A stretch of 34,950 bases of DNA from a virus: positions 1 through 34,950 of IMG/VR virus record IMGVR_UViG_3300028399_000021, one strand, 5' to 3'. The notes beneath the pieces are model-generated. The model worked only from the letters and a program-made list of their open reading frames with translations, made no database searches and was not told the origin of the DNA. The position numbers and the translations under genes were made by a program. Numbering within the stretch: position 1 is the stretch's first letter; every line of letters begins with the position of its first letter. Below, in pieces: positions 980 to 34,313 of the stretch.

Positions 980-1053
980 CCGCTGTGATGCGCGTCTGAT
1001 GCGCTTGATGCGCTTGGTGATGCACTTCGCTGACCTGGGGTTTTGCTGCTTGC

Positions 1054-1080
1054 TGATGCGTTTGATACGCAAACTGATGC
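1054..1080. repeat. 27-bp direct repeat, copy 1
   Basis: Perfect 27-bp match to 1187-1213. Each copy contains two TGATGC hexamers flanking an inverted repeat with arms GTTTG and CAAAC around ATACG. The mix of direct and inverted elements is typical of initiator or regulator binding sites. Confidence 0.75.
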
Positions 1081-1186
1081 ACTTGGTGATGCGCTTGGTG
1101 ATGCGCTTCCTCTTGCACCACCCGATATCGTCCAATATCGTCCCCGTTCGGCGGCCGCGTCGCTTGTACCCCCGCTTGTGCACCTG

Positions 1187-1213
1187 TGATGCGTTTGATA
1201 CGCAAACTGATGC
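1187..1213. repeat. 27-bp direct repeat, copy 2
   Basis: Second perfect copy of the element at 1054-1080, beginning 133 bp from the first. The identity stops exactly at both ends. Confidence 0.75.
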
Positions 1214-1310
1214 GCCAGCGAGCCATATCCTGGAAACGCCCAGGTCAGGACGGGTTTTCGACCCCGTCGACCGCATCTAGCGGTCGCGGCCGCGAGCGAC
1301 CGTTCGCGGG

Positions 1311-10264: not shown

Positions 10265-11098
10265 ATGCCGATACATATCGGTGGAGTGGGAGACGCGTTC
10301 GCACGGCATCTCGTCGGGCTGGGGCTGGCAGACAGCACCATCCGCAACTACACGGCGAAGGTCGCCGCAGCCGCCGCATGGCTCGCCGAACACCGCGGCG
10401 TCGACCTCCACACCGCCGGCGCCGACGACATCCGCGCCTACAGCCGCACCACCCCCAACACGGCGTCCACCCGGCGGCAGCTGCGGGTCGCCCTCTCCCA
10501 CTGGTGGCAGTGGACCGGCAGACACGACCCGCCCGTCGGCGCCGTCCGCGTCCCACCCAAACGCCGAGGCGTCTGCCGCGCCCTCGAACCGGACGAAGCC
10601 CGCGCCGTCGTCAAAACCGCCCTCGGCTGGCGACCCGAAGGGCTCGCCGTTCTCTGCGGCCTCTACCTCGCCCTACGCGCCTCCGAAATCGCCGGCCTGC
10701 GTTGGGACCAGTTCGCCCCCGACCTCACCTGGGTCACCATCACCGGCAAACGGGACGTCACCGCCGACCTGCCCGTCCACCCCATCCTCGCCGGCGAGCT
10801 CGCCGAGGCGCAGACCGCCTGGCGGTGGCTGTTCCCCGGCTCCCGCGGCCGAGCCCACGTCCACCCCGGCACCATCTGGACCTGGTCGGTGCGGGTCTGC
10901 CAGGCCGCCGGCGTCGGCCATGTGGAGCCGCACCGGCTGCGGCACACGGCGTTGGCGACCGCCAACGACCGGCTCGGCGACCTCCGCGCCGTGAGCCTCT
11001 TCGCCCGCCACGCCAGGGTGGAGACGACCATGATCTACACCCGCACCACCGCCCGCAAACTCCAAGCCGTCGTCGAATCGCTCGACTACATGACGTGA
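10265..11098 (+). CDS. int: Tyrosine recombinase (phage integrase)
   Basis: 277 residues. The N-terminal SAM-like core-binding domain covers about 10-95 and the catalytic domain about 105-270. Catalytic residues are all visible: R138 (LALRASEIAGLRW), K162 in the beta hairpin (ITGKRD), H223 and R226 (PHRLRHT), H249 and Y258 (MIYTR). It is compact and Xer-like, without a long arm-binding domain. The start could be ATG 10265 or GTG 10286, the latter with GGTGGA just upstream. It should integrate the phage into the host chromosome; no attP can be assigned. Confidence 0.93.
   Translation: MPIHIGGVGDAFARHLVGLGLADSTIRNYTAKVAAAAAWLAEHRGVDLHTAGADDIRAYSRTTPNTASTRRQLRVALSHWWQWTGRHDPPVGAVRVPPKRRGVCRALEPDEARAVVKTALGWRPEGLAVLCGLYLALRASEIAGLRWDQFAPDLTWVTITGKRDVTADLPVHPILAGELAEAQTAWRWLFPGSRGRAHVHPGTIWTWSVRVCQAAGVGHVEPHRLRHTALATANDRLGDLRAVSLFARHARVETTMIYTRTTARKLQAVVESLDYMT
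10268..10281. promoter_or_regulatory. Palindrome over the integrase start
   Basis: CCGATA and TATCGG flank a 2-base centre, directly over the first codons after ATG 10265 and upstream of the alternative GTG 10286. It could be a regulator binding site for integrase expression. Confidence 0.3.
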
Positions 11099-13141: not shown

Positions 13142-13419
13142 CAGACCGGCACCCCTCCGATGTCGTCCGGCGGCGGGGTTCGGTGGTCGAGGGCGATGGT
13201 CTCGAGGGTGCGTTGGATGTCGGAGATGGCCTGCTCCATCCGGACGATCCGGTCATGCAGGCTGTGGCCGTCGTTGGGTCGGAACTGGGCGGCGATCTCC
13301 ACCAATATCGGGGTGGCGTCGGACAGGCGGGCGAGGGGTACGACGATCCGCCACCAGACGACGGACATGGCGGCCATGCCGGAGACGACGCCGATGGCGA
13401 CCTGCAGCCACATCGGCAT
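13141..13419 (-). CDS. Membrane-anchored coiled-coil protein (holin-like)
   Basis: 92 residues, TGATG overlap with the endolysin stop. N-terminal membrane span (about 4-23), then a soluble helical region with HDRIVRMEQAISDIQRTLET, a likely coiled coil, and a Pro-rich end. Proteins of this shape sit beside endolysins in many actinophages and are called holin or DUF2746-like. Lysis role inferred. Confidence 0.65.
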   Translation of the reverse strand: MPMWLQVAIGVVSGMAAMSVVWWRIVVPLARLSDATPILVEIAAQFRPNDGHSLHDRIVRMEQAISDIQRTLETIALDHRTPPPDDIGGVPV

Positions 13420-14342
13420 CAGCCGCCTCCCGCAGCCGCCCTCAACCCGGCGACGATCCGGGAGAGGATCGACTGGTGTTCGTCGACGCGGGCGGAGAGG
13501 GTGGTCCAGTCGCCGGTCGTGTCCGCTCTGCGGACGGCGGCGAGGATCCGGTCGGCTTCGCCGGGACCAATGCCGACACCGGTCGCCGGCGCGGCGTGGG
13601 TGCGGATCGCCTTCTCAAACACGTCCGACCAGGCACCCCATTCGTCGCCCCGGTCGGGACCGAACGGCAACGTCGGGTCCAAGCGGAGGAGTTGCCGTTT
13701 CCACCACTCCACCTTCCAGGCCTTGGCTCTGGTGTCGGGGTCGTCACGTAGGACGAACATGGCGTCTCCTTGGTCGTCGATGAGGACGGCTGCACGGGCC
13801 CGGATGTCGTCGAGGGACGGCAACCCGGCCGACCGGATGTCCGGCTTGCGGGGCGTCCACCGGCGATGGTCGATCACCTGGCCGGCGGTGAGGCCGTAGT
13901 GGATGCAGAGGGCGGCGACGGTGCGGCACAAAGCGTCCACCTGGACGTCGGGGGCGGTCTCGGGTGGCCGATGGTTGACGGCGACGCCGACGAGCCACTG
14001 GTTGCCGGACACGGCCGACGTGGCGGCGTCCCGGTCGGCCCGGCCTGTGCGCAGGTCGTCGAGGACTTGGGGGTCGCCTCGTCCCGCATGCCAGGCGACC
14101 CGCTGCGACAGCAGCCAGCAGCGGCCGTCCCGGTCGACGACGACGTGGTAGATGACGGCGCCGTACCGGTTGCGGCGGGTGTAGTAGTCGGCGCCGGGCC
14201 ATGACGAGATGGCGTCCCAGTGGAGGACGACACCGAGGGTGTCCTGCCGGTCACCGGAGGCGGTGCGGGTCTCCCACCCGTCCGCCTCCACGACATCAAC
14301 ATCGAAAGCACGGAGCAGGTCGGCGAGGCTCATACCGGTCAT
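13419..14342 (-). CDS. N-acetylmuramoyl-L-alanine amidase endolysin
   Basis: 307 residues. Amidase_2/PGRP-type domain in about residues 20-185: LGVVLHWDA with ligand H41, YHVVVDRDG, RVAWHAG, and DHRRWTPRKPDI with H159 and D168 as the other zinc ligands. It would cut the amide bond between MurNAc and the stem peptide. The C-terminal ~120 residues are helical and may be a cell-wall binding domain. ATG 14342 (or 14333) lies 15 bp after the cysH stop. Confidence 0.87.
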   Translation of the reverse strand: MTGMSLADLLRAFDVDVVEADGWETRTASGDRQDTLGVVLHWDAISSWPGADYYTRRNRYGAVIYHVVVDRDGRCWLLSQRVAWHAGRGDPQVLDDLRTGRADRDAATSAVSGNQWLVGVAVNHRPPETAPDVQVDALCRTVAALCIHYGLTAGQVIDHRRWTPRKPDIRSAGLPSLDDIRARAAVLIDDQGDAMFVLRDDPDTRAKAWKVEWWKRQLLRLDPTLPFGPDRGDEWGAWSDVFEKAIRTHAAPATGVGIGPGEADRILAAVRRADTTGDWTTLSARVDEHQSILSRIVAGLRAAAGGG

Positions 14343-14357
14343 CGTGTCACCATCCCC

Positions 14358-15125
14358 CTACGTGAAGCATCTCGCCTGTGGATATGCGGCAGCGAACCGC
14401 TCGTAGAGATCAGGCCAGCCGGCTTTCAGGACCGCCAGCTGTCCGTATCCGAGCGCGGTCTCGCATGCGAACGGGCCGACGCGACGCTGGTCGAGCGGCA
14501 CGCCGATCTCGGCCAGCCGGTCATATGCCCGGTTGTAGTCGAGGCCCCTCGACAGGATGAATGCCCATACGTCACGCACCGACCATGATGCGAGGGGATA
14601 CACCTGCCATACTTGCCTGGTTTCGGCTCGGAACAGCGGCCCGTAGGTTCGGATATGGATCCGCCTGTATGCGTTCTCGTCGGCCCGGATGCCGATCGCC
14701 GCCCCGTCGTAGCCATTGTTCCGAGCCCACGTGATCAGTGCTCCATCTGCGTCGGCGTCCACCCACTCCGCCCCTGCAGGCCGGTCCTTCTCCCATGACG
14801 TGAACCAGTCGGTATGTCGGGTCTGTCCGGCGACCCGGATGAGGCCATCGACGCGGTCGATGTAGTCGAGGGTCTCTGGCAGGTGCCATTCGTCGTCGGA
14901 CCAGACGACGTCGATGTGTCTGGCGACGTCACTGACGAGGCCGAGGAGGGCCGTCGAATCCTTGCCTCCCGAGAAGGCCACGTATGGCCGTTCCGTCCGG
15001 TCGAGGAAGTCGGACAGCAGTTGGCGTGCCATCTCGACGCGACGGCCGAAAGGCCGCGTCTTGGCGTGAGCGAGCAGCCCGGCCTTCTCGATCGGTTTCA
15101 AGGGCGCCGCACCTCGGTATGCCAC
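14358..15125 (-). CDS. cysH: CysH-like PP-loop protein of type IV-B CRISPR-Cas
   Basis: 255 residues from a GTG at 15125 that overlaps csf3 by 28 bases; no Shine-Dalgarno is seen, so it is probably coupled. The PP-loop YVAFSGGKDSTALLGL (SGGKDS at 52-57) defines the adenine-nucleotide alpha-hydrolase/PAPS reductase superfamily. The catalytic ECG-x-H thiol motif of true PAPS reductases is absent; only scattered Cys occur (FACETA, QARCFT). CysH-like proteins are the hallmark accessory of type IV-B loci, with an undefined role. Last gene of the Cas operon, directly before the endolysin. Confidence 0.88.
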   Translation of the reverse strand: MAYRGAAPLKPIEKAGLLAHAKTRPFGRRVEMARQLLSDFLDRTERPYVAFSGGKDSTALLGLVSDVARHIDVVWSDDEWHLPETLDYIDRVDGLIRVAGQTRHTDWFTSWEKDRPAGAEWVDADADGALITWARNNGYDGAAIGIRADENAYRRIHIRTYGPLFRAETRQVWQVYPLASWSVRDVWAFILSRGLDYNRAYDRLAEIGVPLDQRRVGPFACETALGYGQLAVLKAGWPDLYERFAAAYPQARCFT

Positions 15126-15859
15126 GGCGCATACCAGTACGGCGGTGTCCAGCCGCCGTACGTGAGCCGCCCATCCGGGATACGACCTCGGTCATGCCAG
15201 TAGGCGATCGGGGTGGTCCGCTCCATGACGGCGGCACCGACGATCTCTTCGACGGGTTCGTCGATTGGTTCGACCAGCCAGCGGACGACCCGGCCGAAAC
15301 CCTGCGACGGCTTCTTCCCGATGTGTGTGACGACGTCCAGCAGCCGTTCGATTTCGGTATGGATGCCGACGACGACCGCACGGAGCTCCGGGACACGGAC
15401 TGTCGGCATTGGGATCCGGTACTCCTTCCATCTACCGGACCGCATGTTGGCGTTGCGTTTGCTCGACCATTCAGCTTCGGCAGTCGGGTAGCGCTTGTGC
15501 CAGTACTCTTTGTCACGGAGCGTCTGACCTTGCGGCAGCAGATCCGACGCGGCCCATAGGGGGAGACCGTCACGGCTGACCCATGCGAGATGAACCGGCA
15601 GGGGGAATACCGCGGCGCTATCGTCCGGAAATCGCAGCGGATACGGGAATGTGTTCGCCACGGCCCAGACCAACACGCCGTCCAGGTGGATACGGCCGTC
15701 TGGCTCCGCTGGAACATACGGTGTGCCGAGCACCGCACGGACGAGTAAAGGACGCATGTCCGCGCCCTGCCATGCATCGTGCAGCGCTTCCAGCGTCTCA
15801 CCGCGTCGCCTTGCCCTTGCGGGCACATACGGCATCCGGCGGGTCTCTAAGGTCCGCAT
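15098..15859 (-). CDS. csf3: Csf3, Cas5-like subunit of type IV-B CRISPR-Cas
   Basis: 253 residues from ATG 15859 (13-base overlap with csf2). The first 34 residues look like an extension: M35 (ATG 15757) begins MRPLLVRAVLG, followed by RIHLDGVLVWAVAN, matching the usual Csf3 N-terminus. A glycine-rich loop GKKPSQGFGRVVRW (about 181-194) is the RAMP signature. Cas5 subunits cap the 5' handle of the guide RNA. Gene order csf1-cas11-csf2-csf3 supports the call. The true start is uncertain between the two ATGs. Confidence 0.88.
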   Translation of the reverse strand: MRTLETRRMPYVPARARRRGETLEALHDAWQGADMRPLLVRAVLGTPYVPAEPDGRIHLDGVLVWAVANTFPYPLRFPDDSAAVFPLPVHLAWVSRDGLPLWAASDLLPQGQTLRDKEYWHKRYPTAEAEWSSKRNANMRSGRWKEYRIPMPTVRVPELRAVVVGIHTEIERLLDVVTHIGKKPSQGFGRVVRWLVEPIDEPVEEIVGAAVMERTTPIAYWHDRGRIPDGRLTYGGWTPPYWYAPWHTEVRRP

Positions 15860-16698
15860 ACCGCCTTTCCGCTCCCCAACGTCCCGTCGAGCAGGCCAGC
15901 CCGCATCGACTCGACGTTGCTATCGATGTGGGCCAGATAGACGTCGGGGTCAGGCAGGTTCGGCTGTTGCACGGCCATACGGCCTCGACCCTGCCGGGCC
16001 TGACCACCAAAGTAGCCGTCCCACTGGTCGACGGCTACAGCGACGGCTGCTTCCGCCGCAGGTGATGTCGCCCCCTCCAGGGTCACTTCGACGAAGAACC
16101 GCGCTCCAGCTGCCAGCACCTCGTACTCGTAGAGCATCTGGTTCCCGTCGGAATCCGAACCGGTCCCTCGGGTGCGTACCTCCTCGGACAGGAGGTCGAA
16201 CACTGAGACCTGTTCTGCGTCGTCGACGAGTTCGGGTGCGACGTGATGGAGCGCCCCGACGAACTCCCGTGTGACCGGCCAGGCAGCGACCCGGAGGCGG
16301 CTCCGTGGCAGGATGAAGGTGTCGACGGCGCCGCCGAGCAGCTCCAACGTGGGGTACAGCTCGCGGATGCGGTGGGCGACCTCGATCTCGTCAGACGGGC
16401 TCTTTGACCCTGCGGCCATATTCCCGCCGGAGAACAGCAGGTTGGTGACCGCTTGCGGCAGCGACCCCTTGGCGACAGCGAGCACCGCCAGCAGATGCAG
16501 TGCCAATGGGATCCGGAAGACCACAGTGCGGAGGGCGTTCTCGGAGATGTCCGGCACCCTGACAGGTACACCGTCGATCAACATCGCCGACCGCATGAAC
16601 AGCCGGATGTTCGTCACGTTATCGATGCCCGTGAGGGTGTCGCTGTGAGTCACCGGCTCAATGGCTTCCAGCATGAACGTGTATCTCTTAGGTTTCAT
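15847..16698 (-). CDS. csf2: Csf2, Cas7-like backbone subunit of type IV-B CRISPR-Cas
   Basis: 283 residues from ATG 16698, with AAGGAG about 11 bases upstream and an 11-base overlap with cas11. Cas7 subunits polymerise along the guide RNA. The Csf2 signature is clear: VPDISENALRTVVFR (about 48-62), GGNMAAGSKSPSDE (91-104) and ELLGGAVDTFILPRSRLRV (119-137). A C-terminal GGQARQGRGRM supplies the glycine-rich RAMP loop. Length is normal for the family. No frame damage is seen, so the subunit should be functional. Confidence 0.92.
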   Translation of the reverse strand: MKPKRYTFMLEAIEPVTHSDTLTGIDNVTNIRLFMRSAMLIDGVPVRVPDISENALRTVVFRIPLALHLLAVLAVAKGSLPQAVTNLLFSGGNMAAGSKSPSDEIEVAHRIRELYPTLELLGGAVDTFILPRSRLRVAAWPVTREFVGALHHVAPELVDDAEQVSVFDLLSEEVRTRGTGSDSDGNQMLYEYEVLAAGARFFVEVTLEGATSPAAEAAVAVAVDQWDGYFGGQARQGRGRMAVQQPNLPDPDVYLAHIDSNVESMRAGLLDGTLGSGKAVCGP

Positions 16699-17095
16699 CG
16701 AGAGGCAGCTCCTTCTCCTCGCCGGCGCGTCCGCTCTTCCGGGCGGCCTTGTCGTCGTCATGCCAGGCCCGGGCCAGCATGACGATGCTCGGTGCGTCCT
16801 CGACGAGCGCCCTGAGCACCGCCGCCTCGTCGTCGGCCTCCAGCATCGGCAGCACCACTTGGTCGGCATGCTTCGGCGGCGTCGGCCACTGCATCCTTGT
16901 GAGTAGACGCGCCCAGAACTGAAACAGCGTGCGGCTTTGGGCCGCGGCGATCCGCACCCGGCCTTCGAGTGCGGCGTAGCGGCCCGGACCCGACAACAGC
17001 CCCACCCCGTCGTAGGTGTTATAGAAGTCGAGGCCGCTCTTGATCAGTTTGACTGCGTGCCGCTGCGGCCCGCTCAACGCTTCGAGTAGCTCCAC
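16688..17095 (-). CDS. cas11: Cas11 small subunit of type IV-B CRISPR-Cas
   Basis: 135 residues from a GTG at 17095, with a strong AAGGAGG site 6 bases upstream; it lies inside the last 77 bases of csf1. Predicted all-helical (LEALSGPQRHAVKLIKSG, AQSRTLFQFWARLLTRMQ, VLRALVEDAPSIVMLARAWH), as expected for the small subunits that line the target strand in type IV-B complexes. Sequence alone would not name it; length, helicity and position between csf1 and csf2 do. Confidence 0.82.
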   Translation of the reverse strand: MELLEALSGPQRHAVKLIKSGLDFYNTYDGVGLLSGPGRYAALEGRVRIAAAQSRTLFQFWARLLTRMQWPTPPKHADQVVLPMLEADDEAAVLRALVEDAPSIVMLARAWHDDDKAARKSGRAGEEKELPLDET

Positions 17096-17846
17096 CTTTT
17101 TCCTCCTTCCGTAATCCGGCGACGACCAGCGCCGGCACGAACTCGTCGATGTCCCTCAGCGACGCCAACATGCGCTCGAGGCTGATTCCGTCCGTTCCGA
17201 GCTGTCGCATCAGCTTGTAGTTGCGCCACAGGCCGCGGTAGATGTCCGCCTTGGTGAATCCCAGCCGGAGCGCACAGATGATCGAACGGGCGATGCGTTC
17301 GACCGTTGCGAGATCAAGGTATCTGAACTCGGAGACGTCGTACTCGGGCGCATGCACGTATAGCCCGAAGGAACCTAAGGTGACGGCTTTCGCTCTCGGC
17401 CACAGCCTCGGTTTGACGTCTGTGGTTAGGATCCCGGCGGCGGGGAGCCCTGCATTCATCTCGACAACGTCCCGGACCACACGCAGCCACGCAGGTCTCG
17501 TGTCCGTCTCTGACTCGAGCGATATGACCGGCCAGTACAGCCGTTCGCCCACGACCAACAGGTTGCCTGGCCGTGCCCTGCCCATGCCGAATAGGTAGGC
17601 GCATGGTGCGCAGACATGGGTGCCGTGTCGTAGGAAGTCTCCGTGTTGCGAGAACGTGGGGCCGACGATCGTCTCGTGAGGTACACCCGCTTCGATGCTT
17701 TGGCCACAGGTTGCGCAGCAACCATCGATCTGTTCGAGGGTCCATTTCGGCTCGGGCTCACCCAACGCTCGCCACACCATCGAGGAGATCGTCCCGCGCG
17801 CTCCGTCGACGGAGAGGCCCCTCAGCGTGTCAGAGAGCCGACGCAC
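17019..17846 (-). CDS. csf1: Csf1, large-subunit protein of type IV-B CRISPR-Cas
   Basis: 275 residues from a GTG at 17846; an ATG at 17780 is possible but would leave only the conserved MVWRALGEPE start. Csf1 is the type IV large (Cas8-like) subunit that holds the guide 5' end. Zinc-finger pairs C44/C47 (CCATCGQ) and C79/C82 (CAPCAYLFG) bracket a GVPHETIVGPTFSQHGDFLR segment, followed by RARPGNLLVVG, all typical of Csf1. It is the first gene of the operon. Its start overlaps the out-of-frame tail of the preceding phage gene. Confidence 0.9.
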   Translation of the reverse strand: MRRLSDTLRGLSVDGARGTISSMVWRALGEPEPKWTLEQIDGCCATCGQSIEAGVPHETIVGPTFSQHGDFLRHGTHVCAPCAYLFGMGRARPGNLLVVGERLYWPVISLESETDTRPAWLRVVRDVVEMNAGLPAAGILTTDVKPRLWPRAKAVTLGSFGLYVHAPEYDVSEFRYLDLATVERIARSIICALRLGFTKADIYRGLWRNYKLMRQLGTDGISLERMLASLRDIDEFVPALVVAGLRKEEKGGATRSVERAAAARSQTDQERPRLL

Positions 17847-17948
17847 GAGGGTTTGCTTCCCAGAGTCGGGCGACGGGGGCGAGGTATCCGTGGGCGGTCA
17901 TGTGGGCGGCCCAGAGCCGGAAAGGGGTGCGGGTGGCCTGGTAGGGGG
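17830..17948 (-). pseudogene. Out-of-frame C-terminal part of the 17898-18398 gene
   Basis: In the -1 frame relative to the upstream gene, 17948-17830 encodes a convincing protein tail (PYQATRTPFRLWAAHMTAHG, then YLAPVARLWEANPRASAL) with strong GC3 bias, while the annotated frame becomes Pro/Ser-rich and stops at 17898. The frames meet at a C5 run (17944-17948 on the plus strand as GGGGG). One extra C would give a single 189-residue protein. Explanations: homopolymer error, real mutation, or frameshifting. Confidence 0.6.
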
Positions 17949-18398
17949 CGAGCCGTCGGCGAAGCGTCGGAACAGTTGCCGGGCGGCGACGGAGTGCGGA
18001 TCCCAGCAGTCGGCGGGGACCGGTTCGCCGCGGCGAGCAGCCTCGAGGTCGGCATGGCCGCGGGGTGTGACGGCGCGGAGTCCGTACCGTTGCCGGTCGA
18101 TCCTGTCTGCGATGATCTCGCCGTAGCATCGTGCCCACCTCCTGATCAGTTCGTCTGGGTCTGTGACGTCGCCGTTGTCGAGCTGGTCGGCGATCTGGCA
18201 GAGGTCGTCGCCCAGATCGTGGCGGCGGTTGGGTCGGCAGTGATGTTCGGCCAGTTCCCTCACCGCCGACGCGGTGAGGTGGTAGACGGCGGTGAGGTCG
18301 GAGACGGTGCCGTCTGCGTGGAGGACGGCGGGGCCGGTCCAGCGGATGAGATAGCCGCCCATCCCGTCGGGCTGCCAACGGTCGATCGTGATGGTCAT
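17898..18398 (-). CDS. Tail-region protein, probably frameshifted near its 3' end
   Basis: 166 residues as read; the ATG at 18398 overlaps the minor tail gene stop (ATGA). The N-terminus is beta-rich (ITIDRWQPDGMGGYLIRWTG). A helical middle (YHLTASAVRELAEHH, DDLCQIADQLDNGD, ELIRRWARCYGEIIADRI) follows. The last ~18 residues (SPPTRPPAPLSGSGPPT) look wrong, and the natural continuation lies in another frame ending at 17830. Function unknown; last phage gene before the Cas operon. Confidence 0.68.
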   Translation of the reverse strand: MTITIDRWQPDGMGGYLIRWTGPAVLHADGTVSDLTAVYHLTASAVRELAEHHCRPNRRHDLGDDLCQIADQLDNGDVTDPDELIRRWARCYGEIIADRIDRQRYGLRAVTPRGHADLEAARRGEPVPADCWDPHSVAARQLFRRFADGSPPTRPPAPLSGSGPPT

Positions 18399-20029
18399 CT
18401 CAGCCCCACCACGAACGACTGGAGGCGGACCTGGTTGTCGTTGAGCGTGCCGAGATTCACGTTGGTCCACCCATAGACGGAGATCGTCGACCCCGGTGCC
18501 ACAAACGTCTCCTGGTGCACCCTGAACGTGACGCTGGTGGAATCGGGTTCATGGATCGTCTGGCTGTTGGCGTCGGTCGGGGCCGATCCGTCGGTTGTGA
18601 TGCCGAGCTGCATGTTCCGTTTGGTGCCGGTCGCCGAGAGTGACCCCTGGAAACGGAGGATTGCCCAGAGATTCGCGGTTCCGACCCAGCTTGGGATGGT
18701 GTGGGTGTTGGTGACGTAGTTCCGCCAGGTCGTGTCGATGGCCACGTTGTTTGCGTCCGCCAGCTGCATGTCCGTCCACACCGGGTCGGACATCTCGGTG
18801 ACGGTGACCGCCTGCGACGCGATGTTGGGGGTGGTGACCGGGGTCGTCCACGTCCGGTCCGGCACCGCCGGCGACTCCCTCGAGATGATCCGTTTGGACG
18901 GTGCGCCGACTTTGAGCCGGGCCTGCCCGGTCTCCCACCGCACGTAGGGGGTGAGGTCGATGTAGTTGCCGTCGGCGTCGCGGTAGTAGACGCCCATCCC
19001 TTCCCGGACCGGCCAGCGGATCTCCCACACCCGCAACACGAGCGGCGACAGCAGCTCGCCCCGATGGGTGGTCTGCTGGGAGGTGTCGACCACCCTGCCC
19101 TCGGGGAACCATGCCCAGATGTTGTCGCCGGGTTGGACGAGGCTGCGGATCCGAGGATGGTCCGTGGCCGCTGTCACCACACCGGAGACGTTGGCGAACC
19201 GGTTCAGCTGCGCCTGAGCCACCACACTCGCTTCGCCCGATTCGGTGATCGGACTCGACACGGGCCTCTTGCGGACCAACGGGTTGCCCTGCGGATCCTT
19301 GTAGGGGTTGGTGGCGACGTCGGCGGTGCCGACCACGATCGTCTCGGTCTGCTGACCCTCGCCGAACAGCACCACCCTGCTGGTCCAGTCGTCGGCGTCC
19401 CACTCCACGTCCAGCACCGTCGCCGGCAGGCCGTCGGTCACCGGATCCTCCCCGGCCCGGTCGAACAACACCACCGTGGGCGTGACGTTGAACAGGGCCG
19501 ATTCGGGGCCGGCGTCGACCGTGAAATCCGGGTTCACCCGATACGACGCCGAGTAGTAGTCGACGATGTAGTCGAGGACCTGCCGGCGGTTGAGGTAGCG
19601 GACGTAGATGGTGCGGTCGCCGGACGACGGCGGGGCGACATTGGTGACCGTCCCCGGCTGCAGCGGCGACGGGGTGCCGTTGATCGTGCCGAGGAGGCCG
19701 TTGATCCAGTCGGCGAACGTCCACGACGCCGTCGGCCGCCACGGCGTCTCGATGATGTCGCCCTTGCCGTCCTGATCGCCGAGATGGATCAGCGGCCCAT
19801 AGCCTGCGAGCCGCACCGACAGGTCGAGGCGGCGGGCGGGCCGGTAGACGACACCGGTGTACCGGGCCGCCGCGAGCATCCCCGAGTCGCCGAGTGCGGC
19901 CGGGTCGACGGGGGAGTCGGTGATGACGACGTGGCCGAACTCGACCAGCTGGGTGACGACGTCCGACGGGGTGTCGTCGGAGAGGCGCAGGTCGAAGCGC
20001 CCGTGGCCGCGGTACCGTTCCGTGATCAT
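18395..20029 (-). CDS. Minor tail protein (tail-tip, gp27-like position)
   Basis: 544 residues from the ATG at 20029 (ATGA overlap). Residues about 1-340 resemble a siphovirus tail-tip protein: beta-rich, with RRQVLDYIVDYYSASYRVNP and a NIWAWFPEGRVVD OB-like stretch. The C-terminal ~200 residues form a separate beta domain rich in Thr/Asn, possibly receptor-binding. Order after the tape measure and a distal-tail-like gene supports the call; the exact role is inferred. Confidence 0.75.
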   Translation of the reverse strand: MITERYRGHGRFDLRLSDDTPSDVVTQLVEFGHVVITDSPVDPAALGDSGMLAAARYTGVVYRPARRLDLSVRLAGYGPLIHLGDQDGKGDIIETPWRPTASWTFADWINGLLGTINGTPSPLQPGTVTNVAPPSSGDRTIYVRYLNRRQVLDYIVDYYSASYRVNPDFTVDAGPESALFNVTPTVVLFDRAGEDPVTDGLPATVLDVEWDADDWTSRVVLFGEGQQTETIVVGTADVATNPYKDPQGNPLVRKRPVSSPITESGEASVVAQAQLNRFANVSGVVTAATDHPRIRSLVQPGDNIWAWFPEGRVVDTSQQTTHRGELLSPLVLRVWEIRWPVREGMGVYYRDADGNYIDLTPYVRWETGQARLKVGAPSKRIISRESPAVPDRTWTTPVTTPNIASQAVTVTEMSDPVWTDMQLADANNVAIDTTWRNYVTNTHTIPSWVGTANLWAILRFQGSLSATGTKRNMQLGITTDGSAPTDANSQTIHEPDSTSVTFRVHQETFVAPGSTISVYGWTNVNLGTLNDNQVRLQSFVVGLR

Positions 20030-21264
20030 CGCCGCACCGGGACGACCCGTTCGGATACGTAGCCGAGGTATTGGAGGCACAGATCGTCGGCAGAGTTCCC
20101 GAACGTCGCCGCGTCCCGCACCGTGCCGATGAATGCCGACAGCGTCTTCCGGGCGCTGGACACCGACAGCCCACCCTGGGTGGTGTCGAACGTCACCGAC
20201 TCGCCCGAACCGGCGATGTAGCGTTGCCCGTCGGCGTCGTCCGCCGACGCCTGCACCGCCACCGCCGACGTCGCCCCGGATGGGGTCACCGTCGTACCCG
20301 CCTCAGCCGACTGCCTGCGGATCTCCAAGGTCGTCGCCACATGGAACGCCATGACCACCTCGACGTACCGGGAGCCGCGCCGCAGCGACAGGTCGACTGT
20401 CATCCGCCCGGCGTTCGGCGATCGCGTGTAGGTCAGTCTGATCGCGCAGGCCTCGGCGTCATTCCGCAAGATGTCGATCGCGCTCCAAGTGCCGACGGCC
20501 GTGCCAGACCACTCCAAAACCCACGTCTTTGCCGACGACCACGACGACCCTGTCCAGGTCTCGATGTCGAGTCTGCCCGGGTTCGTCGGGTTCGGTGTGA
20601 CCCGGAGCAGGCCGTTCGACAGCTCCCAGTCGGTCGGCGAGTTCGGACAGGCCAGCCCCGCCCGGACATAGCCGCCCACTTTGATCGTCGCCGCCGCCCG
20701 GTAGTAGGCGGCCGGGGAAATCCCCCACTTCGGGTCGACGGTCGTGTCGATGTCCAGCCACGACTTGACCTGTGCGCCGTCTGCGGTGTCCCGCCACACG
20801 TACGACGGCGCACCAGGCACGTCGTAGGCGTAGAACCCGAGCGGGACTGCATGCCACGGTTGCGCCTCCGCCAGATCGATACCCTGCACGTTCGACCGCA
20901 CAGCCCCGGTGATCACCGACTGCATCTCCACGTCCGCCTCCGACCCGACCCGCTGCAGGCGGATGCTGTAGGGGGCGAAACCGCGGTCGTTGAGGGACTG
21001 GACATCGACGTCGGCAGCCAGCAGCCGGTAGTAGCCGTCGATGCGGGAGTCGCCCGTCCACGTCACCGGCACGAACCGGCCATGCTCGACGGTGGCGGCC
21101 AGCTCGTCCCGCAACGCCAACGTGTCCGCCAGCGATGCGGCGACCAGGTCACCGCGGAGCTGCAGCTCCCGGCCACGACCTGCCCGCACCCGCACCACCA
21201 TCCGGTCCGGGTCGTCGACCGACACCGGGTCAAGGCCGACACGGCCCACGGTGAGGACGGCCAT
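20026..21264 (-). CDS. Minor tail protein (distal-tail-like)
   Basis: 412 residues directly after the tape measure gene, the usual place of the distal tail protein. The N-terminal ~110 residues (LRGDLVAASLADTLALRDEL, VPVTWTGDSRIDGYYRLLAA) match the Dit-like pattern in actinophages. A large C-terminal beta domain (DIETWTGSSWSSAKTW, MTVDLSLRRGSRYVEVVM) may bind carbohydrate or decorate the tail tip. Confidence 0.76.
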   Translation of the reverse strand: MAVLTVGRVGLDPVSVDDPDRMVVRVRAGRGRELQLRGDLVAASLADTLALRDELAATVEHGRFVPVTWTGDSRIDGYYRLLAADVDVQSLNDRGFAPYSIRLQRVGSEADVEMQSVITGAVRSNVQGIDLAEAQPWHAVPLGFYAYDVPGAPSYVWRDTADGAQVKSWLDIDTTVDPKWGISPAAYYRAAATIKVGGYVRAGLACPNSPTDWELSNGLLRVTPNPTNPGRLDIETWTGSSWSSAKTWVLEWSGTAVGTWSAIDILRNDAEACAIRLTYTRSPNAGRMTVDLSLRRGSRYVEVVMAFHVATTLEIRRQSAEAGTTVTPSGATSAVAVQASADDADGQRYIAGSGESVTFDTTQGGLSVSSARKTLSAFIGTVRDAATFGNSADDLCLQYLGYVSERVVPVRR

Positions 21265-26033: not shown

Positions 26034-27935
26034 TCACCCTCCTTCGATCCTCGTCGCGGCGTCGTCTGCTGTCGCACGTCCAATCGCCGCTGCGGCAGAC
26101 GCCAACGTGTCGACGGGGTCGGATGCTGCTGCGGTGATGCCGACCGGTCGGTGATCGACGCCGATGCGGTCGACGGCGTTGTCGCCGGGTTCGACGCTGG
26201 TGGGTGGCGGTGTGCCGCCGGTGGCGGCGACCGACCAGGCGGTGTCGGTTTCGGCGGCTTGGCCGATGATGCGGGAGCGGAGCGCCGTCAACGCCCGCGC
26301 CAGCGACGTCTCGACGGCTTGGCTGACGGTGATGTGTCGGCCTGCCACCACCGGCCGGGCGGTATCCGCCTCGGCGGCTTGACCGGTAGCGATGATGCGG
26401 TTGGGGGTGGCGGGTTGGGCGGTGTCGGTTTCCGCGGCTTGGCCGACCGGGACGGTTTGGCCGCCGGCTTCGGTCACCGGCTGCGCCTGATCGGCCTCGT
26501 CGGCTTGGCCGATCAGGACGGTGCGGCGGGGTGTCAGCGGCCTGGCAGTGTCCGACTCGACCGCCTGACCGGCCGCAACGGTCTTGGCGGCGGCGACCGG
26601 TTGGGCCGTGTCGGCCTCGACGGTCTGGTTGACGGCGATGCGACGGTTGGGGACGACCGGCCGGGCGGTGTCAGTCTCGACCGGCTGGCCGACGGCGGCG
26701 GCCTTCGCCGTGCCGACCTGCTGCGCCTGATCCGACTCGGATGGCTGCCCGACCGTGGCGGTCTTGCCGGCGGAGACGGGCTGCGCGACGTCCGCCTCGG
26801 CAGCCTGCCCAGCCGTGACAGCCCTGTCGGCGGTGACCGGCCTGGCCGCATCCGCCTCGGCAGCCTGACCGACCACGGCGGTTTTGGCCGTGCCAACCGG
26901 TTGCGCGGTGTCTGCCTCGACGGCCTGGCCGACCGGGATGATGCGGACCGGCCGCACCGGCTGCGCCACATCCCCCTCGACCGCCTGCCCGACCCCGAGA
27001 TCACGGGCCGTCAACCAATCGACCAGCAGATCCCGGTTGGTGCGGTAGCCGGCCAGACCAAACCGCAGGTTGCCTGCGATCTGGGTGTCGGTCGTCGACA
27101 GCCACACGTCCGAGTCGACCCTTGCCCGGATCGTCGACCCGTCCACCTCGAGCTGGATGAAGTAGTCGACGTCGGCAGCGATGCTGCGGCTCTGTGAGGC
27201 GATGTCGGTGTTGGAGCCGTTGACGGTGCGGGTGATGTCCAACCTGCCAGCGCTGTCGAGTGCGGCCCGGTAGTAGGTCTGGGATGCGGAGTCGAATCTG
27301 GCGGTGACGCCGATCACCCCGGACACGGATGTGGCGTAGCGGACGGGGGCGCCGACGTAGTGGTCGTCCGAATCTAGGTCGTGCTCCGCCCTCGCCGCAG
27401 CACCGGAGTTGTTGGTCCGTGGCGTGGCACGGTTGGAGACCGTCTGCCAGTCGTTCTGCACCTCGGTCCACGTCAGATCCGGCCCGAGGACGGAGCTGTC
27501 GGCCTGGTTGAACGACTCGGTGTAGCCGACGGCTTGGATCGGTGGTGCGGCGTAGACGAGTTCGCCGCACCAGATCTCCACCAGACCACGGCGGCCTGGT
27601 CTGCATGGCCGCCACCGTCTCCCGTCGTGGCGGCCGTGGACGACGAGCAGCTCGGCGAGGACGCCGCGGAGCCGACGCCGTTCGGTTAGGGTGACGGTGA
27701 GGCGGTCCTCGAGGCGCCGCACCAGCCGGGCCGGGAGGCGGGCGTCGAGGTCGTCGCTGAGATGTAGCACGTTGCGGGCCAGCCGTCCGGGCCGGCCGGC
27801 GGTGCGGACGACCATAAGGCCGGCGGCGCCCGGTGGGGACAGGTCGATCGCCGTCCAGTCCCCGTCGACCGGCGGCCGCCACCGGTTCCGGTCGGTGCCG
27901 TCGCCTACGAGCGGGGTGAGCAGCCAGTGGGCCAC
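26034..27935 (-). CDS. Virion protein with LamG-like domain and 13 repeats
   Basis: 633 residues from a GTG at 27935. Three parts: an Arg-rich N-terminal region (about 1-135); a concanavalin/LamG-like beta sandwich (about 138-312; ESFNQADSSVLGPDLTWTEV, FIQLEVDGSTIRARVDSDVW); then thirteen ~20-residue repeats of pattern GQAxEaDtAqPV (about 313-570), and a low-complexity tail. Probably a head or neck fibre that binds glycans. The repeats may act as a stalk. It lies between the small capsid genes and the connector. Confidence 0.72.
   Translation of the reverse strand: MAHWLLTPLVGDGTDRNRWRPPVDGDWTAIDLSPPGAAGLMVVRTAGRPGRLARNVLHLSDDLDARLPARLVRRLEDRLTVTLTERRRLRGVLAELLVVHGRHDGRRWRPCRPGRRGLVEIWCGELVYAAPPIQAVGYTESFNQADSSVLGPDLTWTEVQNDWQTVSNRATPRTNNSGAAARAEHDLDSDDHYVGAPVRYATSVSGVIGVTARFDSASQTYYRAALDSAGRLDITRTVNGSNTDIASQSRSIAADVDYFIQLEVDGSTIRARVDSDVWLSTTDTQIAGNLRFGLAGYRTNRDLLVDWLTARDLGVGQAVEGDVAQPVRPVRIIPVGQAVEADTAQPVGTAKTAVVGQAAEADAARPVTADRAVTAGQAAEADVAQPVSAGKTATVGQPSESDQAQQVGTAKAAAVGQPVETDTARPVVPNRRIAVNQTVEADTAQPVAAAKTVAAGQAVESDTARPLTPRRTVLIGQADEADQAQPVTEAGGQTVPVGQAAETDTAQPATPNRIIATGQAAEADTARPVVAGRHITVSQAVETSLARALTALRSRIIGQAAETDTAWSVAATGGTPPPTSVEPGDNAVDRIGVDHRPVGITAAASDPVDTLASAAAAIGRATADDAATRIEGG
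26220..26997. repeat. ~60-bp tandem repeats inside the fibre-like gene
   Basis: Thirteen coding repeats of about 60 bp in phase, each encoding a GQ-A-E-x-D-x-A-x-P core. DNA copies are diverged at third positions while the protein motif is kept, which indicates selection on the protein. One unit is expanded to 22 residues (TEAGGQTVPV). Confidence 0.8.
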
Positions 27936-32678: not shown

Positions 32679-34313
32679 CTACCAGATCTCGGCCAACAGG
32701 TCGGCGGGCCGGCCGTTGAGGGCGTGCCAGCGGGCCCGGTGGGCAGCGACCACGGCGGCGACGGCGGCGTCGATCTTGTGCGGCGAGTCGGGTTTGTCCT
32801 TCGTCACGACCTGGTAGCCGCGTCGGCTCACCGGCACACAGTTCCCGAGATGGCGGGCGACCACGTCAGATCCGTCGTGGCTGATGTCGCCGTCGGCCAC
32901 CGCCTGGGAGAACTCGTCACAGGCCGGCCCCATCCGCGACGGCTGGTTCGTGTCGAACCGGACGACGACATCCCAACGAGACTCCCACTCCTCGATCTCC
33001 CGATGCCAACCTGGCGGGTCCACAGCCAACTCGGCGACCCGCCAACGGGCCATCGCCGCCGACAACACCTCCTCCACCTCGAGGCGTGGCGTCCGCCAGT
33101 CGGTCTGGCCGGGCGGCCTCTCCCACACCTCCACGACGAACACATACGGCTCCGCCGCCACCGTGGCCCCCACCAGAGCGGTCGAATCCCGGCTGTAGGA
33201 GCCGTCGAACGCCAACACCACCTCGGTGCCTTCCGCCGGCCATCCCGGATGCCCCGGGATCACGTTCGGAAGGACGTCTACACGCCGGGCCGGCCAGACG
33301 GCGACGACCGGATGCCACTTCGTGGACGAACGTCGCGGCTGGTTCAGCCAGTAGCGGCGCCACTCGTTCTCCGACCCGTCCCGGAGCGCCTTCGCCCCAT
33401 CAGAGACGATCGTCGCGATGTCAGCCCACGCCGCCGCATCACCGGAAGCCTCCAACACCGCCGCCTCACGTTCGTCCGCCTTGCCGATGTTCCACGACTC
33501 GGACGCCTGACGATGATCGAAGTACAGGTCGGAGACGTCCACCTGGCCCCGCATCGTCGCCAACGCCAACTCGTGGGCCTCCTCCGCGACCGACCCTTCC
33601 CCCGGCCCGTACATCGTCGTCGTCTCCAAACTCCACGGGTCGGCCATCCGACGCTTCGGGACATTCCGCAGCATCGTCTGATGCGTCTGCCTCAGCCGCG
33701 GCGACGTGAACAGATGCGTCTCGTCGAAGTGCTGAAAGGACGTCCGGGCGCCATCCCGAGCGGACGGTGACGACGCCAACGCCTGGATCTTCCCCGGCGC
33801 CCTCTTGTGGAGGATCCGGTCGAGCCCGACGTCGTAGTCGTCGACCAGCCCACACGAGTCCTGGGTGAGGATCGAGTACACGGCGCCGTAGGCGAGGTCG
33901 TCGGTCTGCTCCTCGGTGACCGCAACCATCGGGATGTACGGGTCCGTCACCGGCCGGCCCACCGGCGCCCACCCGTCCGGACCCTTCCGCCACCCGTCGC
34001 AGCGGACCGGCGCCGTCGGATCCATCTCGGCGATCGCCAGCCACGCCGCCAACTCCGTCTTCCGGCAGCCCTTCCGCCGAGAGTACACCACCCGCTTGAA
34101 CCGGCGCCGCCCAGCCATCTCATGGCCACGGGGATACACCTCGTAGGCCCGCCAGATGAACGCCCGCTCCTCGTCCGTCAACGTCACCCGCTCACCCAAC
34201 ACGTCGCCAGGCCCGTGCACCAGACACGCCTCGATCCACGCACACACCTCAGGCCCCAACGTCGGCCACGGCTCCTCCTCGAGGGCAGGCACGATCAACC
34301 GGCTGCCGCTCAT
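32679..34313 (-). CDS. terL: Terminase large subunit
   Basis: 544 residues, ATGA overlap with terS. The ATPase has a Walker A variant SRRKGCRKTE (about 78-87) and Walker B FQHFDETHLF (D197/E198). The RNase H-like nuclease has D370 (LAFDGSYSRDST), D432 (LAVDPPGW) and D515 (HKIDAAVAAV). It packages and cuts the concatemer. All catalytic residues appear intact. Confidence 0.95.
   Translation of the reverse strand: MSGSRLIVPALEEEPWPTLGPEVCAWIEACLVHGPGDVLGERVTLTDEERAFIWRAYEVYPRGHEMAGRRRFKRVVYSRRKGCRKTELAAWLAIAEMDPTAPVRCDGWRKGPDGWAPVGRPVTDPYIPMVAVTEEQTDDLAYGAVYSILTQDSCGLVDDYDVGLDRILHKRAPGKIQALASSPSARDGARTSFQHFDETHLFTSPRLRQTHQTMLRNVPKRRMADPWSLETTTMYGPGEGSVAEEAHELALATMRGQVDVSDLYFDHRQASESWNIGKADEREAAVLEASGDAAAWADIATIVSDGAKALRDGSENEWRRYWLNQPRRSSTKWHPVVAVWPARRVDVLPNVIPGHPGWPAEGTEVVLAFDGSYSRDSTALVGATVAAEPYVFVVEVWERPPGQTDWRTPRLEVEEVLSAAMARWRVAELAVDPPGWHREIEEWESRWDVVVRFDTNQPSRMGPACDEFSQAVADGDISHDGSDVVARHLGNCVPVSRRGYQVVTKDKPDSPHKIDAAVAAVVAAHRARWHALNGRPADLLAEIW

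What the first reader, a model, noticed from the sequence alone, without database searches (positions are those of the whole stretch)
14358..17846. Complete type IV-B CRISPR-Cas effector operon inside a temperate siphophage late region
Seen: five overlapping genes in the order csf1, cas11, csf2, csf3, cysH, with the Csf1 zinc finger, the Csf2 GGNMAAGSKSPSD block, the Csf3 glycine loop and the CysH PP-loop all intact. Known: type IV-B loci have exactly this composition and are described mainly from actinobacterial plasmids and related elements, with unknown function. Inference: here it is phage cargo, placed between tail and endolysin genes and co-directional with them, so it may be made late or as a prophage moron. 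This could be a system for phage-plasmid or phage-phage competition.
Basis: partly seen in the sequence, partly recalled or inferred. Interest (0 to 1): 0.93.

Follow-up and report, generated by a model that had tools for sequence, protein, structure and literature searches.

The report
Phage-borne type IV-B CRISPR effector cassette
A bacterial virus carries a complete five-gene CRISPR-type machine with no CRISPR array and no known function, and related viruses carry the same five genes as a sharply bounded movable block, which gives a concrete way to find out what this puzzling machine does.

Summary
On the minus strand at 14358-17846 lie csf1, cas11, csf2, csf3 and cysH, intact and overlapping, in the structural/lysis strand of an integrase-bearing tailed phage (one 34,950-bp IMG/VR record). 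Profiles place the four Csf/Cas11 proteins in type IV; composition and cysH make it subtype IV-B. No array, Cas6 or Cas1/2 was found.
It is not a lone oddity. I found 38 other distinct viral contigs with all five genes, plus one isolated phage (Skermania phage SPI1, genes unannotated, same order). The window falls in a strongly supported clade of five phage contigs with no close plasmid or cultured-phage relative. Within that clade, near-identical cassettes in different phages share DNA only from the csf1 start to the cysH stop: no promoter, array or non-coding RNA travels along. The genes are under purifying selection. CysH keeps its PP-loop and phosphate-binding residues but has no conserved cysteine.
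Best reading: a five-ORF phage moron whose proteins assemble on RNA supplied in trans and carry a PP-loop enzyme. Its use, against host defence or rival elements, remains inference. Phage IV-B was already reported, so this is a new member of a known kind; breadth and clean boundaries are the news.

The parts
17019..17846 (-). csf1 (type IV large subunit, zinc finger); likely true start ATG at 17780
   Evidence: PADLOC typeIV_Cas8 7.5e-13; TIGR03114 2.5e-5, below cut-off; zinc cysteines kept in relatives; AF2 model best matches type IV-A Csf1 7xg1_A and 8rc3_G
16688..17095 (-). cas11 (small subunit)
   Evidence: PADLOC typeIV_Cas11 6e-6; a profile built from 9 sequences including this one matches IV-B Cas11 of PDB 7jhy at 1e-49
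15847..16701 (-). csf2 (Cas7 backbone); ORF open to 16869, likely start ATG at 16701
   Evidence: PADLOC typeIV_Cas7 7.9e-29; PDB 7jhy Csf2 2.3e-8; PHROG 22746 2.6e-19
15098..15859 (-). csf3 (Cas5)
   Evidence: PADLOC typeIV_Cas5 4e-35; TIGR03116 2.4e-13, below cut-off; PHROG 34599 5.6e-11
14358..15125 (-). cysH-like PP-loop gene, the IV-B ancillary protein
   Evidence: PF01507 2e-18; SGGKDS and G145/R147/E150/R154/P177/W181/Y201/R215 kept across 65 homologues, no conserved cysteine; AF2 pLDDT 91, PP-loop fold
17898..18470 (-). 190-aa ORF between tail gene and csf1, no family; not seen with relatives' cassettes
   Evidence: no Pfam, NCBIfam, PADLOC or PHROG match; no tblastn match near relatives' cassettes
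18395..20080 (-). upstream flank: large tail-region protein (by position only; no family match)
13419..14342 (-). downstream flank: endolysin (Amidase_2), starts 15 bases after the cysH stop
   Evidence: PF01510 2.5e-14; PHROG 880 endolysin 5e-18
10265..11098 (+). tyrosine integrase of the phage
   Evidence: PF00589 7.2e-12; PHROG 1 9.6e-29
32679..34313 (-). terminase large subunit, same strand as the cassette
   Evidence: PHROG 9 4.2e-67

Best explanation
The locus is a complete, selectively maintained type IV-B effector operon carried by a phage as a self-contained five-ORF cassette (a moron). Csf2 and Cas11, capped by Csf3 and Csf1, most likely build an RNA-bound filament; the RNA is not encoded with the cassette and must come in trans from phage or host transcripts, processed crRNAs or other small RNAs. 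The CysH-like protein most likely acts with the complex as a PP-loop enzyme that adenylylates or otherwise activates a nucleic acid or nucleotide, not as a sulfur reductase. In this phage it is probably read through from the tail operon into the lysis genes. Its most likely use is to bind or modify guide or other small RNAs for the benefit of the phage (counter-defence or exclusion of rival elements). Shown: genes, membership, phage context, cassette boundaries in relatives, purifying selection, conserved CysH residues. Inferred: complex assembly (by homology to PDB 7jhy), RNA in trans, CysH chemistry, expression timing, biological role.
For: Membership. Phage context. Phage-only clade of five, support 100/100. 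Cassette as a unit: G068 and G072 share 95.5% DNA over 3485 bp, from within a few bases of the csf1 start codon to the cysH stop, with unrelated flanks; G057 has a third upstream flank; across all pairs of different viruses DNA similarity was confined to the operon. The window and G069 share only the cassette (70.7% DNA over csf1-csf2, the rest by tblastx). No array or mini-array in the window; no Cas1, Cas2 or Cas6 among the scanned window proteins. dN/dS 0.08-0.34. CysH residues; closest folds human FAD synthase (an FMN adenylyltransferase) and CysH. Published: the IV-B complex assembles on heterogeneous RNAs about 55-60 nt long (PMC7937560). No promoter or terminator match on the cassette strand from 12.4 to 20.3 kb.
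Against: No expression or biochemical data. The promoter scan covers only sigma-70 consensus sites and is weak for a 68% GC phage. Relatives sit in early-type (RecE/RecT) as well as structural positions, so timing is unsettled. RNA in trans is an argument from absence: a short or distant RNA gene could be missed. An RNA-sponge role does not by itself explain why CysH keeps its active-site residues.
Confidence: 0.55

Rival explanations
1. The complex is an inter-element weapon: it loads crRNAs made by the host's own CRISPR arrays and uses them against plasmids or other phages, helping the lysogen.
For: Type IV-A does this with its own crRNAs against plasmids (review PMC11656645); IV-B is common on rival plasmids (69 plasmid records); the integrase suggests lysogeny.
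Against: The published IV-B complex showed no enrichment for co-expressed crRNAs (PMC7937560). The cassette brings no array or Cas6, and lies here in an apparent late operon with no detected promoter of its own.
Confidence: 0.2
2. It is a non-defence regulator: a late-expressed RNA-binding and nucleotide-modifying machine that acts on host or phage transcripts during the lytic cycle.
For: Cassette strand matches the structural genes in 21 of 29 records with portal, terminase or capsid hits (two-sided binomial 0.024, by hand, lineages not independent); an Amidase_2 endolysin lies within about 2 kb in the window, G010 and G038.
Against: 8 of 29 are on the opposite strand; in G072 the cassette sits next to RecE/RecT; a regulator tuned to one phage would not be expected to spread across such diverse phages as a clean block (inference).
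Confidence: 0.15
3. Chimeric assembly of plasmid and phage reads.
For: Cassette GC3 is lower (0.72-0.80) than that of flanking phage genes (0.87-0.90).
Against: Four other phage contigs carry the same clade in other phage settings; isolated phage SPI1 has the same order; no plasmid is close (best 28%). The composition shift fits horizontal gain.
Confidence: 0.03
4. A decayed or passenger remnant with no function.
For: No known target, array or nuclease.
Against: All five ORFs intact; dN/dS 0.08-0.34 in the pairs that could be computed; active-site residues kept in CysH.
Confidence: 0.03

Closest known systems
Type IV-B CRISPR-Cas of Mycobacterium sp. JS623 megaplasmid (PDB 7jhy, PMC7937560)
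   Same: Csf1, Cas11, Csf2, Csf3; no array or Cas6; Csf2 matches 7jhy at 2.3e-8
   Different: On a phage; Csf2 about 23-28% identical to actinobacterial plasmid copies; cysH co-directional and last, whereas it is divergent in five of five Mycobacteriales plasmid loci where it was in view
Skermania phage SPI1 (KR011061), orf40-44, annotated hypothetical
   Same: Isolated actinophage with csf1-cas11-csf2-csf3-cysH in the same order and strand, between structural genes and lysin/holin
   Different: Distant proteins (Csf2 26%, CysH 29%); lysin 2.2 kb downstream, not adjacent
Fuxiviridae (Bathyarchaeia virus) type IV-B locus (PMC10848311)
   Same: Complete virus-borne IV-B effector set with CysH
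   Different: Archaeal virus with a two-repeat mini-array; the window has none
Plasmid RHOApd of Rhodovastum atsumiense (NZ_OW485605)
   Same: Co-directional csf1-cas11-csf2-csf3-cysH
   Different: Plasmid; small extra ORF before cysH; Csf2 groups with other viral contigs, not with the window clade

Membership tests
Type IV CRISPR-Cas | Csf2 (type IV Cas7) | tested here: met
   PADLOC 7.9e-29; PDB 7jhy Csf2 2.3e-8; NCBIfam TIGR03115 only 0.0048, below cut-off
Type IV CRISPR-Cas | Csf3 (Cas5) and Csf1 large subunit | tested here: met
   PADLOC 4e-35 and 7.5e-13; Csf1 model matches IV-A Csf1 structures, best E 3e-3, prob 1.00
Subtype IV-B | Cas11 present, large subunit Csf1 rather than Cas10-like | tested here: met
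   PADLOC typeIV_Cas11 6e-6; Csf1 275 aa, no HD or Cas10 match
Subtype IV-B | Linked cysH-like gene lacking the reductase cysteine | tested here: met
   PF01507; no conserved cysteine in 65 homologues
Subtype IV-B | No CRISPR array, no Cas6, no adaptation genes | tested here: met
   no array; no Cas1/2/6 in protein scans of most genes. The smallest ORFs were not all scanned
Subtype IV-B | Forms an RNA-bound Csf2-Cas11 filament | not testable with these tools
   published for JS623 (PMC7937560); no complex prediction available here
Subtype IV-A | DinG helicase, Cas6/Csf5 and array | tested here: not met
   none found
PAPS reductase (CysH, sulfate assimilation) | C-terminal catalytic cysteine motif | tested here: not met
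   no conserved cysteine; PP-loop kept
Temperate siphophage | Integrase; tape measure without contractile sheath | tested here: inconclusive
   integrase yes; tape measure 513 aa; no sheath among scanned genes, not all genes scanned

The most novel reading that the evidence does not exclude
Array-less type IV-B is primarily a phage weapon or counter-defence, spread among unrelated phages as an exact five-ORF block. It assembles on RNA taken from the infected cell and uses the CysH PP-loop enzyme to adenylylate that RNA or its bound target: a nucleic-acid-modifying form of CRISPR effector not yet described.
Probability: 0.25. Interest if true: 0.88.

Novelty: new member of a known kind. Interest (0 to 1): 0.6.

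Why it matters
The function of type IV-B is an open question, and it has been studied on megaplasmids, where it is hard to assay. Here it is a compact phage gene block with clear ends, present in many phages and in one isolated phage (SPI1). That turns the question into ordinary phage genetics: delete the block, infect, sequence the bound RNA. The exact csf1-to-cysH boundaries also argue that these five proteins are the whole system and that its RNA is borrowed.

Tried and rejected
Single-protein scans of viral and genome contigs found no relatives; wide alignments had no usable conserved stretch; degenerate DNA patterns worked instead. One Csf3 pattern was mis-spaced by a codon, so (one viral scan and the last genome scan) are uninformative. 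Sister phages by capsid (13 loci) are too short or too distant to show the empty site. Search for a conserved sixth cassette gene: none on the cassette strand beyond phage genes. A conserved RNA beside the operon: no shared flanking DNA to hold one. Chimeric assembly: rejected (see rivals). Array in contig G031: follows a TnpB-like gene, so not taken as the IV-B array. The Csf1 model is of modest quality (pLDDT 70). The paper on type IV diversity (10.1093/nar/gkz1197) is not held.
Full report
What is there. The window is one complete IMG/VR record of 34,950 bp. On its minus strand lie csf1 17019-17846, cas11 16688-17095, csf2 15847-16869 (likely start 16701), csf3 15098-15859 and cysH 14358-15125, each overlapping the next. 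PADLOC profiles give type IV Csf1 7.5e-13, Cas11 6e-6, Cas7 7.9e-29 and Cas5 4e-35; NCBIfam's csf1, csf2 and csf3 models also match but below their curated cut-offs, so the set is divergent. CysH is PF01507 at 2e-18. Csf2's only meaningful match among solved structures is Csf2 of the IV-B complex 7jhy, 2.3e-8. PHROGs already hold phage families for csf2 and csf3 without a function.

Phage context. The same strand carries small terminase (PF25673), large terminase, portal, capsid protein, minor tail protein, tape measure, further tail-region genes, a 190-aa ORF, the cassette, and an endolysin that starts 15 bases after the cysH stop. RecE and RecT and a plus-strand integrase are present. Terminase relatives are actinophages at about 40%. 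No sigma-70 promoter or terminator match was found on the cassette strand between 12.4 and 20.3 kb, a weak result in 68% GC DNA. No array, mini-array or tRNA was found. GC3 of the cassette is 0.72-0.80 against 0.87-0.90 in the endolysin and the upstream tail gene, as expected for acquired genes.

Relatives. Among 50,697 phage records only Skermania phage SPI1 has a detectable IV-B Csf2; its orf40-44, annotated hypothetical, are csf1-cas11-csf2-csf3-cysH in the same order and strand, between structural genes and a lysin/holin pair. Sixty-nine plasmid records match the JS623 Csf2, mostly Rhodococcus and mycobacteria; in the five Mycobacteriales plasmid loci where cysH was in view it is divergent. 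Two degenerate DNA patterns in IMG/VR, followed by profile searches built from these loci, gave 38 distinct further viral contigs with all five genes and more with partial sets. In all of those 38 cysH is co-directional. Hallmark searches confirm phages: 29 records including the window and SPI1 have a portal, terminase or capsid match. The cassette shares their strand in 21 of 29; I computed a two-sided binomial of 0.024 by hand, and the lineages are not independent.

The window's own lineage. A Csf2 tree of 63 rows puts the window in a clade of five viral contigs, support 100/100: L172/G069 (Csf2 76%, Cas11 76%, Csf1 62%, CysH 48%, Csf3 36%), and L150/G057, L171/G068 and L178/G072 at 58-59% in Csf2. 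The uneven identities suggest exchange of single genes within the block (inference). The best plasmid match to this lineage is 28-30%.

Boundaries. G068 and G072 share 95.5% DNA over 3,485 bp, from within a few bases of the csf1 start codon to the cysH stop codon, and nothing adjacent. In G068 the block sits between a minor head protein and a head maturation protease; in G072 it follows RecE/RecT; G057 has a third upstream flank. G069 has it upstream of the terminase. The window and G069 share only the cassette. In the all-pairs comparison with 2.5-kb flanks, similarity between different viruses stayed within the operon apart from one 240-bp stretch upstream in G007/G034 and about 160 bp past csf3 in G006/G025. 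So no promoter, array or RNA gene is seen to travel with the five ORFs in the window's clade. That the window's own cassette behaves the same is inference from its clade.

Selection and chemistry. dN/dS is 0.08-0.34 for the gene pairs that could be computed; the G068/G072 csf1 pair gave no value, and the window/G069 dS values are near saturation. In 65 CysH homologues the PP-loop (S52, G54, K55, D56, S57) and G145, R147, E150, R154, P177, W181, Y201 and R215 are nearly invariant, and no cysteine is conserved. The CysH model (pLDDT 91) is a PP-loop fold whose nearest solved structures are human FAD synthase, an FMN adenylyltransferase, and CysH (TM about 0.5). A review calls CysH an inactivated reductase (PMC11656645); the conserved PP-loop argues that only reductase chemistry is gone, in line with the ATP alpha-hydrolase proposal of PMC8175902. 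Csf1's model (pLDDT 70) best matches type IV-A Csf1.

Mechanism. The published IV-B complex assembles on heterogeneous RNAs of uniform length, without crRNA enrichment (PMC7937560). Together with the cassette boundaries this favours RNA supplied in trans. Whether the phage gains by sponging or modifying guides, by using scavenged crRNAs against rivals, or by acting on transcripts is not decided by sequence; I rank the first highest.

Novelty. Type IV in prophages, some phages and an archaeal virus is already reported (PMC10848311, PMC11656645). The window is a new member of subtype IV-B. What I did not find described in the papers read is the breadth of the five-gene block in phages, the co-directional cysH and the exact cassette ends; the library searched is open-access only.

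Noticed in passing
L112:8655-10760 (IMGVR_UViG_3300027706_000010): TnpB-like ORF immediately followed by an 8-repeat CRISPR-like array (37-nt repeat, 72-75 nt period, last spacer duplicated), then a terminase gene; the array lies about 3 kb downstream of that phage's IV-B cassette. Spacers have no match in the phage collection. Resembles the TnpB arrays of Lalka Thermus phages (PMC11437467).
   Followed up: partly
L003:6837-10470 (KR011061): Skermania phage SPI1, an isolated phage, carries an unannotated complete type IV-B operon.
   Followed up: yes
window 990-1220: Short degenerate direct repeats of the TGATGCGCTTGGTGATGCGCTT type, including a perfect 27-nt pair at 1054 and 1187; function unknown.
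   Followed up: no
window 26220-26990: About ten copies of a 60-base degenerate repeat inside the 633-aa structural-region ORF 26034-27935.
   Followed up: no
G016-G019, G026, G027, G033, G035, G040 (e.g. L087, L089, L102); G012 (L083), G032 (L114); L179: Some viral IV-B loci have cysH between csf2 and csf3; G012 and G032 have two cysH-like ORFs; L179 has csf1 and cysH on the opposite strand to csf2 and csf3.
   Followed up: no
L068:2801-6824 (G002): Order csf1-cysH-cas11-csf2-csf3: cysH lies inside the operon, right after csf1.
   Followed up: no
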